Assembly (NCBI RefSeq): GCF_021228295.1
Contig: NZ_JAJQPD010000005.1
Span: 248,001 to 312,000, forward strand
DNA length: 64,000 bases
Direction of reading: 5' to 3'
DNA from: Agromyces humatus
Lineage (GTDB): Bacteria; Actinomycetota; Actinomycetes; Actinomycetales; Microbacteriaceae
Of this stretch, positions 52,614 through 56,437 are shown one piece after another. A program made the position numbers and the translations under genes. Under the pieces are notes generated by a model. The model was not told where the DNA came from. It worked only from the letters and a program-made list of their open reading frames with translations, and did no database searches. Each line of letters begins with the position of its first letter. Positions within the stretch are counted from its first letter, which is position 1.

Positions 52614-53711
52614 ATGGCCGGCGACACGACCTCGGCATCCGCGGCTGACGGTCCAGCCGACTACGCGCGCTTCGGGCTCGACCCGGTGACCATCGCCCCG
52701 TGGGAGGACGGCGCCCGCACCGACAACCGGCCCGGCACCTACGAGTGGTGGTACTTCGACGCGCATCTCGACGACGGGGCGAAGCTCGTGGTGGTGTTCC
52801 AGAACAAGGACGTCGTGAACCCGAATCAGCCCCTGTCGCCGCTGCTGCGCCTGAGCCTCGACCTGCCCGACGGCCGCTCGTTCGAGAAGCTGCTGAACCT
52901 GCCCGCAGAGTCGTGGGCTGCCGCGACCGACCGTGCCGATGTGCGGCTCGGCGATAACCGATTCGAGGGCGACCTGCACACGTACCGCATCACGGCGACG
53001 GCCGACGAGGTGTCGGTCGACGTGACGCTCACGGGTCAGATCCGACCGTGGCGGCCCGGCACCGGGCACATGCTCTTCGGCGCGAACCGCGAGCTCGAGT
53101 TCGCGTGGCTTCCCGCAGTGCCGCAGGGCGCGGTGACCGGCAGCTACACCGTCGACGGCGTGACGACTCCCGTCACCGGCGTCGGCTATCACGACCACAA
53201 CTGGGGCAACGTGAGCCTGCTCAAGATCATTCACGACTGGTACTGGGCGCGTGGCCAGGCCGGCCCGTACAGCGTCATCGCGTCGTACATCACCGCGGTC
53301 GAGAAGTTCGGCCACGAGGCGATCCCGGTCTTCATGCTCGCGCGCGATGGCGAGATCGTGGCGGATGACCCATCGCTCGTGCGGTTCGAGACCGAGCGCG
53401 TGTACACCGACGACCTCACTGGCAAGCCCGTGGCATCCGTCGTTCGCTATTTCTACGAGCACGGCGACGATCAGGTGGTGGTCACGTTCACTCGGGAGCG
53501 CGACCTCACGCGAGCCCTGATGGTCGACGAATTGCCGCGCGCGAAGCGCTTATTGGCGAGGCTCATACGGTTCGACGGCGCGTACCTGCGTTTCGCCGGG
53601 CCGATGACCGTGACCGTGTTCCGGTCGGGGCAGCGGGTCGAGGAGTACTCCGACGACGCCATCTGGGAGCTGATGTACTTCGGGCACGCGCGGGTGCCTG
53701 CGACATCCTGA
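52614..53711 (+). CDS. AttH/CrtC-type lipocalin-like hydrolase or hydratase
   Basis: A 365-residue protein with two lipocalin-like halves. TYEWWYFDAHLDDGAKLVVVF near residues 42-62 and GVGYHDHNWGNVSLLKIIHDWYWARGQ are the family signatures shared with AttH and carotenoid 1,2-hydratase CrtC; several such proteins in natural product clusters catalyse cyclisations. There is no signal peptide. GAAGGAG lies before ATG 52614. It converges on the KASIII-diiron oxidase-DUF6999 operon with 11 bases between the stops. Conservation of that neighbourhood elsewhere would support a joint pathway. Confidence 0.8.
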   Translation: MAGDTTSASAADGPADYARFGLDPVTIAPWEDGARTDNRPGTYEWWYFDAHLDDGAKLVVVFQNKDVVNPNQPLSPLLRLSLDLPDGRSFEKLLNLPAESWAAATDRADVRLGDNRFEGDLHTYRITATADEVSVDVTLTGQIRPWRPGTGHMLFGANRELEFAWLPAVPQGAVTGSYTVDGVTTPVTGVGYHDHNWGNVSLLKIIHDWYWARGQAGPYSVIASYITAVEKFGHEAIPVFMLARDGEIVADDPSLVRFETERVYTDDLTGKPVASVVRYFYEHGDDQVVVTFTRERDLTRALMVDELPRAKRLLARLIRFDGAYLRFAGPMTVTVFRSGQRVEEYSDDAIWELMYFGHARVPATS

Positions 53712-53722
53712 AAAGGAGGGCG

Positions 53723-54574
53723 TCAGTCGAACTCGACGCTGGTGTGGCGCGGATAGGCTCCGTGGGCGAGCTTCACGAGGCGGGCGTGCGCGTACTCGCA
53801 CACGAGCGCGTGCCGGTAGACCATGCGTGGCACGTCGACATTGGAGTCCATCCAGAGACTCATGCCCGCGAGCTTCCAGTGCCGGAACGTGTCATCGTCG
53901 GTGACGAGGGCGAGGATCTCGAGGAACGAGTCGTCGAACCGGATGGAGTGCACCGCACGTCGGTACTCCTCGACCGTGAGCGCCATCGAGAACGGGATGT
54001 TCATGAAGCAGAGGGCGGTCTGGATGTCGAGGCGCAGCAGCCGGCGCCGCTGCCGTTCGGCGTCGAGCGGCGGGATGTCGAGCTGCGTGAAATCGAGCGT
54101 CTCGGGTCGCGTCACTTGTACCGCGTCGAGCGCGATGAGCAGGTCGTAGACGTTGACGTCGTGCTCGACGACGGCCTGGTCGCCGAGCCCGGCGAGGGCC
54201 TCGGGTCGCAGCGTGACCGGCTCCATCGAGACCGGCGTGTTGCGGATGATGAAGTTGACGAGGTTCGTCTCGACGACGAAGTGCCTGATGAGCAGCTCGA
54301 CCGCGTCGGGCGACACGAACCGCCGAAGGAACCAGACGCACAGCACGTCCATCGTGTGCAGCGGCATCCACCGGAACGGCAGCACGCGCTTGACGATCGA
54401 GATGAGCGCGACCAAGATGCGCGAGACCACTCGCGCGATCGGGTAGAGCCAGCGCCGCGAGAGGCGGCGCTGGTCGTCGATGATCAGGCGCACCAGCGCG
54501 CGGTCGAGCGGCACCGAGGGGTCTGCGTACACCGCCTCCCACATGCTGGGATCGGAGCGCACGAACTCGGCCAT
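53723..54574 (-). CDS. DUF6999 family protein
   Basis: A 283-residue protein; I recognise it only as DUF6999-like. It has a hydrophobic amphipathic N-terminal part (ARVVSRILVALISIVKRVLPFRW, written here in part), several conserved blocks (HFVVETNLVNFIIRNT, DLLIALDAVQ, MNIPFSMALTVEEYRRAVHSIRFD) and the C-terminal YRHALVCEYAHARLVKLAHGAYPRH with His and Glu that could bind metal. No known catalytic signature. It starts one base after the diiron oxidase stop, third gene of the operon, so it probably works with the other two. Confidence 0.75.
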   Translation of the reverse strand: MAEFVRSDPSMWEAVYADPSVPLDRALVRLIIDDQRRLSRRWLYPIARVVSRILVALISIVKRVLPFRWMPLHTMDVLCVWFLRRFVSPDAVELLIRHFVVETNLVNFIIRNTPVSMEPVTLRPEALAGLGDQAVVEHDVNVYDLLIALDAVQVTRPETLDFTQLDIPPLDAERQRRRLLRLDIQTALCFMNIPFSMALTVEEYRRAVHSIRFDDSFLEILALVTDDDTFRHWKLAGMSLWMDSNVDVPRMVYRHALVCEYAHARLVKLAHGAYPRHTSVEFD

Positions 54575-54575
54575 G

Positions 54576-55298
54576 TCAGCGATCCAGCTCTTCCAGCTGC
54601 AGCGCGTACAACCGGGCGACGACCTCCGCGCAGCGGACGATCTCGTCGGCTGCGGTGTCGTCGATGATCCCCGAGATCAGGATCGCCTCGAGGTCGCCAG
54701 TGTGCTCGCTATCGGCCTGCTGGTGGTACTGCATGAAGTGCACCTGGTTGTCGGCGAGCCCGAGCACCTCCTGGAACCTCGACGCCCAGCCCGCCGCGCG
54801 CTTCGCGCCGAGTCCCTCGATGATGAACATCGCGCCGAGCAGCCCGACCGGGTTGGGCCGGTCGGCGTAGGTGAACATGTACCCCGAGAGCGCTTCGGAG
54901 CCGACGTTCTTGCGGCCCCGGCGCAGCTCGTCGAGCGTGCCGCCGATCGCGACGTAGTCGCGCTCGATCATGAGGAAGTCGCGGTGCTCCTCTTCAGCGT
55001 GGCGGATCGCCGCCGACCGCAGCTCGAAGTGGTCGATGTCGAAATTGGATGCCGCGCGCGAGATCCACGGCGACCCGTCGACGACCTGCTGGCGGAGGTT
55101 GAAGAGCAGCCGCTGGTAGTCGTCGATCGTCACGGTACCGTCGGCGAGCCGACGCAGCACGGGCACGTGCGCGAGGCGCTCCTCGAGTTCGATCCACACC
55201 TCGGCGAGCCGGTCTGCGAGGGTGTCCGCGCCGGCGGCTGCGTCCGCGTCGGCGGCGGATGTCGCAGCGGTGGTCGTGCTCGTCGACGTGTCAGTCAT
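54576..55298 (-). CDS. Heme-oxygenase-like diiron oxidase candidate (iron-containing redox enzyme family)
   Basis: A 240-residue all-helical protein after a disordered Thr/Ala/Asp-rich N-terminus of about 25 residues. Possible metal ligands are Glu102 and His105 (EEEHRDF), Glu161 (FIIEGLG), and His192, Asp196 and His199 (YHQQADSEH). This E-x2-H, E, H-x3-D-x2-H layout matches the heme-oxygenase-like diiron oxidases, such as UndA, CADD or SznF, which perform varied oxygenations and decarboxylations. AAGGAG lies before ATG 55298, and the start overlaps the KASIII stop. It likely modifies the product of the ketosynthase. Confidence 0.8.
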   Translation of the reverse strand: MTDTSTSTTTAATSAADADAAAGADTLADRLAEVWIELEERLAHVPVLRRLADGTVTIDDYQRLLFNLRQQVVDGSPWISRAASNFDIDHFELRSAAIRHAEEEHRDFLMIERDYVAIGGTLDELRRGRKNVGSEALSGYMFTYADRPNPVGLLGAMFIIEGLGAKRAAGWASRFQEVLGLADNQVHFMQYHQQADSEHTGDLEAILISGIIDDTAADEIVRCAEVVARLYALQLEELDR

Positions 55299-56437
55299 GT
55301 CGGGGCTCCTTGTTGATCCGGTGGGGCGACCACGGTGAGGTGGGCGAAGGCGAACGAGAATCGCCCCGACTCCGGCACCGCGAGCAGCACCGTCTCCCCC
55401 GGGGCGAATCGGCCGGTGCGCCACGCCTCCTCGAGCGCGATGAAGATGCTTGCCGAGCCGGTGTTGCCGCGCGTCTCGAGGTTCGAGAACCAGCGGTCGG
55501 TGTCGAGCGTCGGAATCCTGCGGCGCAGCCCATCGAACGCGAGGTCGCGGAAGACGTTGGTGCTGTAGTGGCACACGACGTGGTCGAGATGCGTGACGTC
55601 GACGAGACCGATGTCGACGAGCTCCTCGAACTGGCGAAGCCCGGCCTCGGCGAGCTCGTCGAGCATGCTGACATCCTGTCGCAGCACGAACATGCCGGCC
55701 GCCTCGGCGTCGGTGATGTCGACATCCTGCCACGTGCGGCCCACGCTCGTCTCGGCACCGGTCATGCCCGAACGCATGCAGACGTCATGCTCGTGTGCGA
55801 GCGAGACGTGCCGAACCCAGTCGAGTCGCAGCGACGGTCTGGTCGGGTGCGGCTGGAACTCGAGGACGACGGCACCGGCACCGTCGGACAGCATCCAGCG
55901 GAGGAAGTGCGAGTCCATGCCGGCGCGGATGCCGTCGAATCGAAGCTGACGGAGGCTGCGGCTCGCCAGCTCGGAGCCGACGACCGCGGCCCGCGGGTGG
56001 TCGCCGAGGCGGATCTTGGCGGCGGCGGCATCGAGCGCGGAAAGGCTTGATGCGCATACCCCGGACGCGGTCAGCAGTTGCATCGGTCCGCCGCCCAACC
56101 GACCGTGCACCATCGACGCGAAGCCCGGCACGAGCACGTCGCCCATCGTGGTCGCGCATGCCAGCATTCGCAGGTCGTCGGCGTCGATGCCCCGATCGTC
56201 GAGCGCCGCGCGGAGCGCCTTCACCGCGAGCTCCTCGTTGAGCTCGGTCGGCTCGCCGTGCTCGTCGAGTGCATAGTGCCGCTGCCGGATGCCATTGGCT
56301 TCGAGCACGCGGCGGCGGATGCGATCGGTGACCGGGTCGTCGCCGCCGAGCCGCGCCGCGATGCCGTCGTTGTCGACCGGATCTCCGGGCAGATACCGGC
56401 CGAAGCCCGTGAGGTATGCGGTCGCCGTCGTGCCCAT
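55295..56437 (-). CDS. 3-oxoacyl-ACP synthase III-like protein (KASIII/FabH fold)
   Basis: A 380-residue thiolase-fold condensing enzyme with Cys128 (ASGVCASSLSALD), His290 (VVCHYSTNVF) and Asn325 (RGNTGSAS), the complete KASIII triad, so it should be active. Length is more than the 320 of FabH, closer to the specialised-metabolism CerJ/OleA-like group. ATG 56437 lacks a clear ribosome site. It is the first gene of the KASIII-diiron oxidase-DUF6999 operon, divergent from the CHY zinc finger gene. It may condense or transfer an acyl chain onto a specific acceptor; neither substrate is known. Confidence 0.85.
   Translation of the reverse strand: MGTTATAYLTGFGRYLPGDPVDNDGIAARLGGDDPVTDRIRRRVLEANGIRQRHYALDEHGEPTELNEELAVKALRAALDDRGIDADDLRMLACATTMGDVLVPGFASMVHGRLGGGPMQLLTASGVCASSLSALDAAAAKIRLGDHPRAAVVGSELASRSLRQLRFDGIRAGMDSHFLRWMLSDGAGAVVLEFQPHPTRPSLRLDWVRHVSLAHEHDVCMRSGMTGAETSVGRTWQDVDITDAEAAGMFVLRQDVSMLDELAEAGLRQFEELVDIGLVDVTHLDHVVCHYSTNVFRDLAFDGLRRRIPTLDTDRWFSNLETRGNTGSASIFIALEEAWRTGRFAPGETVLLAVPESGRFSFAFAHLTVVAPPDQQGAPT

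What the first reader, a model, noticed from the sequence alone, without database searches (positions are those of the whole stretch)
53723..56437. KASIII, diiron oxidase and DUF6999 operon: candidate uncharacterised biosynthetic pathway
Three genes overlap or abut (ATGA, then one base): a ketoacyl synthase III with an intact Cys128-His290-Asn325 triad, a heme-oxygenase-like diiron oxidase candidate with Glu102/His105/Glu161/His192/Asp196/His199, and a DUF6999 protein. An AttH/CrtC-like lipocalin gene converges 11 bases away. Condensing enzyme plus diiron oxidase suggests an oxidised acyl-derived small molecule, for example a terminal alkene, methyl ketone or modified lipid. Catalytic residues are seen; the pathway is inferred.
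Basis: partly seen in the sequence, partly recalled or inferred. Interest (0 to 1): 0.78.

Follow-up and report, generated by a model that had tools for sequence, protein, structure and literature searches.

The report
DarB-like synthase with diiron oxidase operon
Three neighbouring genes, found in the same order in very different bacteria, probably make a ring-shaped lipid related to known bacterial signal molecules, using an iron enzyme and a protein of unknown function where the known pathway uses a different enzyme.

Summary
The operon is real. The order KS, haem-oxygenase-like protein (HDO), DUF6999 recurs in 80 of 81 loci from six phyla (the exception is cut by a contig end) and in 15 of 15 above-cut-off loci found through DUF6999 (some overlap the 81). 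In 33 of 81, KS and HDO are one fused protein. The KS is no generic FabH: its nearest solved relative is StlD, and DarA-linked DarB ketosynthases fall among its relatives in an unrooted tree. DarB makes 4-carboxy-cyclohexanediones; DarA aromatises (literature). Of 8 genomes with a DarB-like KS in one class sample, 5 have a DarA-like gene beside it and 3 the trio; none of 26 trio or variant genomes searched has DarA. Best reading: a DarA-less branch of dialkylcyclohexanedione/dialkylresorcinol biosynthesis in which the HDO oxidises, most simply by UndA-like oxidative decarboxylation. Product and chemistry are inferred. Caulobacter vibrioides matches all three families (adjacency unchecked).

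The parts
55295..56437 (-). StlD/DarB-like ring-forming ketosynthase, 380 aa; Cys128-His290-Asn325 triad and conserved Glu156
   Evidence: PDB sequence match to StlD 5gk0 E 2.9e-64; NF005293 321.8 bits, below its cut-off of 450; triad in all ungapped rows; tree
54576..55298 (-). Haem-oxygenase-like domain oxidase (PF14518), 240 aa; candidate metal-site residues Glu104, Asp107 and/or His105, Glu161, His192, Asp196, His199 (inferred)
   Evidence: Pfam; AF2 model mean pLDDT 89.6; Z 24.8 to CtCADD, 19.8 to UndA; residues invariant in 99 of 99 rows; fused to the KS in 33 of 81 loci
53723..54574 (-). DUF6999 protein, 283 aa, predicted all-helical; Arg97-His98, His138-Asp139, Asp214, His255, Glu260 also kept in a remote relative
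   Evidence: PF22523 319.5 bits; AF2 model mean pLDDT 88.1; no PDB match at Foldseek E<=0.001; conservation
55295..55298 (-). ATGA overlap of the KS stop and the HDO start (translational coupling is inferred)
   Evidence: sequence read directly

Best explanation
A three-gene pathway unit that is a DarA-less branch of dialkylcyclohexanedione/dialkylresorcinol biosynthesis. Step 1 (inferred from homology): the KS joins two fatty-acyl thioesters head to head and closes the ring, giving a 4-carboxy-2,5-dialkylcyclohexane-1,3-dione, as DarB does. Step 2 (inferred): the HDO, fused to the KS in many lineages, oxidises that product with O2. The most economical chemistry is UndA-like: removal of the C5 hydrogen with loss of the C4 carboxylate as CO2, which creates the ring double bond and so the 2,5-dialkylresorcinol, the job given to DarA in the known pathway. 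Step 3 (weakest): DUF6999, predicted helical with a hydrophobic stretch (residues 43-61), handles, further modifies or exports the product. Shown here: co-conservation, fusion, KS kinship, HDO fold, absence of a recognisable DarA.
For: Same gene order in 80 of 81 loci and in 15 of 15 above-cut-off loci found through DUF6999. KS-HDO fusion in 33 of 81. KS nearest to StlD; DarA-linked KSs nested among trio KSs, fork support 97/98. DarB forms 4-carboxy-2,5-dialkylcyclohexane-1,3-diones (PMC5515871, passage); DarA is listed as 'DAR-aromatase', DarB as 'DAR-cyclase' (PMC3949708, passage); darB plus darA expressed together gave a dialkylresorcinol (PMC3992019, passage); a darA mutant makes no resorcinol (PMC6403133, passages). 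Of 8 genomes with a DarB-like KS in one class sample, 5 have the DarA-like gene and 3 the trio; no DarA in 26 of 26 trio or variant genomes searched. HDO fold matches UndA, which turns fatty acids into 1-alkenes plus CO2 (PMC13108848 section 7). In planctomycete L126 an FMO-like and a P450 gene stand where the HDO would be, while KS and a DUF6999-like gene stay.
Against: No metabolite or assay. KS scores below both curated cut-offs, although the five DarA-linked KSs also miss the DarB cut-off of 550 (491-513 bits). The HDO has Asp107 where 3dde has His, so UndA chemistry may not carry over. The model is closer to CtCADD (Z 24.8), haem oxygenase HmuO (21.5), TenA (21.4), HrmI (21.1) and PqqC (20.8) than to UndA (19.8), so the fold does not single out UndA chemistry. 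The DarA profile may miss diverged DarA; the five genomes it hits helped to build it, and the gene is called DarA from position and recall only. DUF6999 has no assigned role.
Confidence: 0.5

Rival explanations
1. The HDO hydroxylates rather than aromatises: it oxidises the cyclohexanedione or resorcinol ring (or the alkyl chain) to a hydroxylated or quinone-like redox lipid; aromatisation, if any, is spontaneous or done elsewhere.
For: HDOs do many oxidations (PMC13108848 section 4). In L126 two oxygenase-type genes (FMO-like; P450, by recall) stand in the HDO's place. The candidate metal site differs from the canonical HDO one.
Against: Absence of a recognisable DarA leaves the aromatisation step unassigned.
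Confidence: 0.2
2. The HDO acts upstream, desaturating or hydroxylating an acyl thioester to supply the enoyl partner that the DarB-type KS needs; the product is a cyclohexanedione.
For: HDOs catalyse desaturation (PMC13108848 section 4); DarB uses a 2-butenoyl partner in the cited example (PMC5515871 passage). An acyl desaturase-like gene lies in or next to the unit in L084, L096 and L100 (named by recall).
Against: Fatty-acid synthesis already provides 2-enoyl thioesters (general knowledge). Upstream action does not explain why DarA is missing.
Confidence: 0.12
3. One reading: the KS makes a linear beta-ketoacyl product that the HDO cleaves to a terminal alkene or methyl ketone.
For: UndA fold similarity.
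Against: KS is far closer to ring-forming StlD/DarB than to FabH.
Confidence: 0.08

Closest known systems
DarA-DarB dialkylresorcinol / cyclohexanedione pathway (Photorhabdus, Pseudomonas chlororaphis, flexirubin producers)
   Same: Homologous ring-forming ketosynthase with the Cys-His-Asn triad; DarA-linked KSs nest among the trio KSs
   Different: No DarA found in 26 of 26 trio or variant genomes searched; instead an HDO, often fused to the KS, and DUF6999. Product not known.
StlD, ketosynthase of isopropylstilbene biosynthesis (PDB 5gk0)
   Same: Match over residues 6-370, E 2.9e-64, active Cys, His and Asn aligned
   Different: Below the NCBIfam StlD/DarB cut-off; different partner genes
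UndA, HrmI and other haem-oxygenase-like diiron oxidases
   Same: Fold (Z 19.8 to UndA, 21.1 to HrmI); Glu104, Glu161, His192, Asp196, His199 align with identical residues of 3dde
   Different: Asp107 where 3dde has His, plus an invariant His105; linked or fused to a ketosynthase, and the words ketosynthase and fusion do not occur in a 2026 review of the family
CtCADD (PDB 1rcw), self-sacrificing pABA synthase
   Same: Fold, Z 24.8
   Different: About 15% identity; here the partner is a ketosynthase

Membership tests
StlD/DarB ring-forming ketosynthases | Homology over the full length with Cys-His-Asn triad | tested here: met
   StlD alignment residues 6-370; triad in all ungapped rows
StlD/DarB ring-forming ketosynthases | NCBIfam cut-off (NF005293 450 bits; NF053539 550 bits) | tested here: not met
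   321.8 and 286.9 bits. The five DarA-linked KSs also miss the 550 cut-off (491-513 bits), so it is strict
StlD/DarB ring-forming ketosynthases | Forms a cyclohexanedione | not testable with these tools
   needs an assay
DarAB dialkylresorcinol operon | DarA aromatase gene with the KS | tested here: not met
   0 of 26 trio or variant genomes searched, own genome included; a diverged DarA could be missed
Haem-oxygenase-like dimetal oxidases (HDO) | Haem-oxygenase-like helical fold | tested here: met
   AF2 mean pLDDT 89.6; Foldseek and VIA-align. The fold is shared with haem oxygenases, TenA and PqqC
Haem-oxygenase-like dimetal oxidases (HDO) | 3 His / 3 carboxylate primary ligand set | tested here: inconclusive
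   Glu104, Glu161, His192, Asp196, His199 match 3dde; the remaining His position is Asp107, with an invariant His105 two residues before. Coordinates not available for geometry
Haem-oxygenase-like dimetal oxidases (HDO) | Binds two metals and activates O2 | not testable with these tools
   needs protein
DUF6999 (PF22523) | Score above gathering cut-off 27 | tested here: met
   319.5 bits

The most novel reading that the evidence does not exclude
A haem-oxygenase-like diiron enzyme is a new kind of aromatase: fused to or coupled with a DarB-type ketosynthase, it turns the 4-carboxy-cyclohexanedione into a dialkylresorcinol (or quinone) by O2-dependent oxidative decarboxylation, with an altered metal site (Asp107 for His). 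DUF6999 is a new enzyme fold acting on the product. The system is a DAR-like pathway spread over at least six phyla, with oxidases (HDO, FMO+P450, DarA) exchanged around a constant ketosynthase.
Probability: 0.3. Interest if true: 0.85.

Novelty: new variant of a known kind. Interest (0 to 1): 0.68.

Why it matters
Dialkylresorcinols and cyclohexanediones are signals, antifungals and pigment parts (passages). This would be a further, widely spread way to make them, in bacteria (Agromyces, Microbacterium, Glycomyces, Sphingomonas, Planctomycetota, Acidobacteriota) in which I recall none. It gives a domain of unknown function (DUF6999) a concrete pathway. It also adds a ketosynthase-linked haem-oxygenase-like oxidase to a family in which, by a 2026 review, only about a dozen members have known functions, mostly on fatty or amino acids. 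All three families have a match in Caulobacter vibrioides (the DarB match is below its curated cut-off, and adjacency was not checked), so gene deletion in a standard laboratory organism could test it.

Tried and rejected
Rejected: (1) lipocalin P0004 as a member: tblastn over all loci held by then finds it only in the own genome and, about 2.6 kb away and not adjacent, in one Agromyces (L023); the 10 relatives lack it within about 17 kb. (2) Glu102 as metal ligand: variable. (3) Plain FabH reading: FabH models score 101.9 and 75.5 bits against 321.8 and 286.9 for StlD/DarB models. (4) Phage origin: no PHROGs hit; no viral contig with a close relative of DUF6999 (the other two proteins were not searched there). 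(5) A known fold for DUF6999: no Foldseek match at E<=0.001; best VIA-align Z 3.3; this does not prove a new fold. (6) Other conserved neighbours: clustering of ORFs in 31 representative loci gave mostly antisense or shadow ORFs of the trio itself, an ABC-transporter ATPase group scattered over the loci, a desaturase-like gene next to the trio in three loci (a fourth, in L099, is far away), and small groups of three; part of that output was cut.

Led nowhere: one search used a wrong Pfam number (PF22522 instead of PF22523). The first neighbourhood script failed on an import. The first hit table used profiles contaminated by fused proteins and was redone. P0010 (the DarA-like protein) matches no Pfam or NCBIfam model at the limits used; it is called DarA from its place beside DarB and from recall. 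Paper searches: DUF6999, 0 papers; ketosynthase with haem-oxygenase-like or iron-containing redox enzymes, StlD/DarB and DarA, UndA/HDO, Caulobacter resorcinols: nothing on this unit in the listings seen (lists were capped at 10-25 rows). Only open-licence PMC papers are held; the primary DarB and StlD papers were not seen. No paper was read whole: passages of eight, two sections of PMC13108848; in PMC4578411 and PMC11547657 the passages gave nothing that is used here.
Full report
The observation. The three - strand genes lie exactly where stated. KS 56437-55295 ends in ATGA with the HDO start; HDO 55298-54576; DUF6999 54574-53723 starts one base after the HDO stop. Pfam finds ACP_syn_III_C and ACP_syn_III in the KS, Haem_oxygenas_2 (42.6 bits, cut-off 28.9) in the HDO and DUF6999 (319.5 bits, cut-off 27) in the third. 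The lipocalin (52614-53711, +) has a CrtC domain (33.3 bits). The window lies in a 4.04 Mb assembly, whose only PF14518 match is this HDO; the nearest named record for the HDO is Agromyces cavernae (94% identity).

Co-conservation. DUF6999 occurs in 4 of 396 sampled genomes of the phylum and 11 of 299 of the family (own genome counted in both, and three other genomes are in both lists). All 10 other loci taken from these carry KS, HDO and DUF6999 in the same order; none shows the lipocalin within about 17 kb. A relative on a Pseudoalteromonas plasmid (27% identity in DUF6999; the only plasmid record found) has the same order. A scan of genome contigs with the HDO alignment found 152 relatives, of which the best 80 were kept. 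With the plasmid locus this makes 81: KS in 81 of 81 (partial in L084, interrupted in L089), DUF6999 in 80 of 81 (L059 ends at the end of the held stretch). They come from Actinomycetota, Acidobacteriota, Planctomycetota, Pseudomonadota, Myxococcota and Melainabacteria (labels), the last two each from one metagenome bin in that tree. At least three of the 10 loci are the same genomes as loci among the 81 (equal contig lengths), so the sets are not independent. That scan was seeded by the HDO; a search seeded by DUF6999 in the class of a Sphingomonas genome hit 6 of 289, of which one was the centre, and the 5 new loci all hold the trio. A like search in the phylum of Gemmata hit 2 of 246: the centre and one match below the cut-off, which lacks the HDO (see 'A variant'). 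The unit is sporadic but tightly linked.

Fusion. In 33 of 81 loci the best KS and HDO domains lie in one open reading frame, about 600-680 residues where complete (Glycomyces, Trebonia, Acidobacteriota, Planctomycetota and others). On the KS tree the fused/split label needs four changes. Fusion is strong evidence that the HDO works on the KS product or its substrate.

What the KS is. Its best NCBIfam match is the StlD/DarB family (321.8 bits, below the cut-off of 450), then DarB (286.9, cut-off 550), far above FabH (101.9 for NF006829, 75.5 for TIGR00747). Its best PDB matches are two StlD sequences (E 2.9e-64 and 7.2e-63); the next protein has 2.8e-16. In the StlD alignment Cys128, His290 and Asn325 align with the StlD Cys, His and Asn; these and Glu156 are present in all ungapped rows (98, 97, 97 and 97 of 99; some genomes occur twice among these rows). 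In an unrooted tree of 43 KSs the DarA-linked KSs sit inside the spread of trio KSs (24-row fork, 97/98; five DarA-linked KSs and the Prevotella one together 100/99, the Streptomyces one apart). The long branches L126 and L141 are placed with little certainty.

The missing DarA. DarB is reported to form 4-carboxy-2,5-dialkylcyclohexane-1,3-diones (PMC5515871, passage). A published table names DarB 'DAR-cyclase' and DarA 'DAR-aromatase' (PMC3949708, passage). Expression of darB and darA of Chitinophaga gave a dialkylresorcinol (PMC3992019, passage). In Pseudomonas chlororaphis darA and darB mutants make no resorcinol, while a darC mutant still does (PMC6403133, passages). Cyclohexanediones are intermediates of the pathway and act as signals (PMC4414361, passages). 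In 143 genomes of the class of G693 (a Pseudomonadales bin), 8 had a DarB-like KS at E<=1e-40: 3 lie in trios (G693 itself, G1310, G1252) and 5 beside a relative of a gene that neighbours the KS on a Streptomyces plasmid and that I take for DarA. A profile of six such proteins finds the gene in those same 5 genomes (by construction, since they are in the profile) and in none of 26 others searched: 25 of the trio genomes and the variant below. So in this sample HDO+DUF6999 and DarA exclude each other. Nothing here shows that the HDO does what DarA does; that is the inference. A Prevotella plasmid KS of this family has neither within the 13 kb held.

A variant. In a planctomycete (G1193, locus L126) a KS is followed by an FMO-like gene, a cytochrome P450 gene (named by recall of its sequence) and a weak DUF6999 relative (20.7 bits, below the cut-off of 27; E 2.3e-4), without HDO. 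In the alignment this remote protein keeps Arg97, His98, Glu102, His138, Asp139, Asp214, His255 and Glu260 but not Phe108, Asn112 or Asp183. If it is a true relative, KS and DUF6999 are the constant pair and the oxidase the changing part; this rests on one genome.

The HDO. The AF2 model has mean pLDDT 89.6, with 87-98 in every block of ten after residue 30. The best PDB matches are 3dde (Z 26.5) and CtCADD 1rcw (24.8); haem oxygenase HmuO (21.5), TenA (21.4), HrmI (21.1), PqqC (20.8) and UndA (19.8) follow closely (Foldseek). The fold is thus clear, but it does not choose among these chemistries. The profile alignment with 3dde places Glu104 on Glu, Asp107 on His, Glu161 on Glu, His192 on His, Asp196 on Asp and His199 on His. 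In 99 sequences His100, Glu104, His105, Asp107, Glu161, His192, Asp196 and His199 are all invariant, while position 102 is Glu in 49 and position 103 in 75. A 2026 review gives 3 His / 3 carboxylates as the usual set and lists other variants; Asp in place of this His is not in the passages and sections seen (PMC13108848, sections 4 and 7 and passages). The words ketosynthase, polyketide, resorcinol and fusion do not occur in its main text.

DUF6999. The model is essentially all-helical, mean pLDDT 88.1. No PDB match has Foldseek E<=0.001, and the best VIA-align Z is 3.3. The most hydrophobic 19 residues start at 43 (mean 1.91), so membrane contact is possible. His98, Phe108, Asn112, Asp139 and Asp183 are invariant in 98 sequences; His138 in 97, His255 and Glu260 in 96 with two gaps. 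No paper in the library names it.

Mechanism proposed. [quoted passage not shown] hydrogen abstraction from C3 is one of two mechanisms considered, and its substrate carboxylate binds one iron (PMC13108848 section 7). The DarB product carries a carboxylate on C4 and a hydrogen on the next carbon, C5; the same reaction there would create the ring double bond and, after enolisation, the dialkylresorcinol. This is chemical inference, not a result. Rivals are ring or chain hydroxylation, and desaturation of the acyl partner before ring closure; an acyl desaturase-like gene in or beside the unit in L084, L096 and L100 would fit lipid tailoring.

A laboratory handle. Among 14 named control genomes, Caulobacter vibrioides has a match to DUF6999 (over the cut-off), to the DarB model (below its cut-off) and to PF14518 (over the cut-off). 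Adjacency there was not checked. Verdict: a real, widespread variant of the DarB pathway that I did not find described in the searches named under Tried and rejected; interest 0.68.

Noticed in passing
L126 5625-10620: Planctomycete variant: KS, FMO-like gene, P450 (by recall) and weak DUF6999 relative in a row, with no HDO; a membrane fatty-acid-hydroxylase-like gene (by recall) converges.
   Followed up: partly
L084 997-1863, L096 8597-9484, L100 3066-4130: Acyl desaturase-like gene (named by recall) in or next to the trio; it lies between the fusion gene and DUF6999 in L084 and L096.
   Followed up: no
L135 4370-18276: Streptomyces plasmid cluster with DarB-like KS, DarA-like protein, two ACPs, FAD ring hydroxylase, FabF, P450, FabG, F420 oxidoreductase and phosphopantetheinyl transferase: looks like an elaborated resorcinol-type pathway.
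   Followed up: no
L141 6971-8854: Diverged KS-HDO fusion with a weak HDO half (157 bits, against 290-388 in the other trios scored), on a long branch.
   Followed up: no
L089 511-2442: KS part of the fusion broken into two frames in a metagenome bin; may be a sequencing error or a decaying gene.
   Followed up: no
L136 5986-7122: Prevotella plasmid StlD/DarB-family KS with neither DarA nor HDO/DUF6999 beside it.
   Followed up: no
52614-53711: CrtC/AttH-like lipocalin with weak, below-cut-off similarity to Diels-Alderase domains; found in one other held locus and not tied to the operon.
   Followed up: partly
PDB 3bjd, match of the HDO model: A Pseudomonas aeruginosa structure with this fold is titled 'putative 3-oxoacyl-(acyl-carrier-protein) synthase' (Z 19.9): an odd name for a haem-oxygenase-like fold that may reflect a similar neighbourhood.
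   Followed up: no
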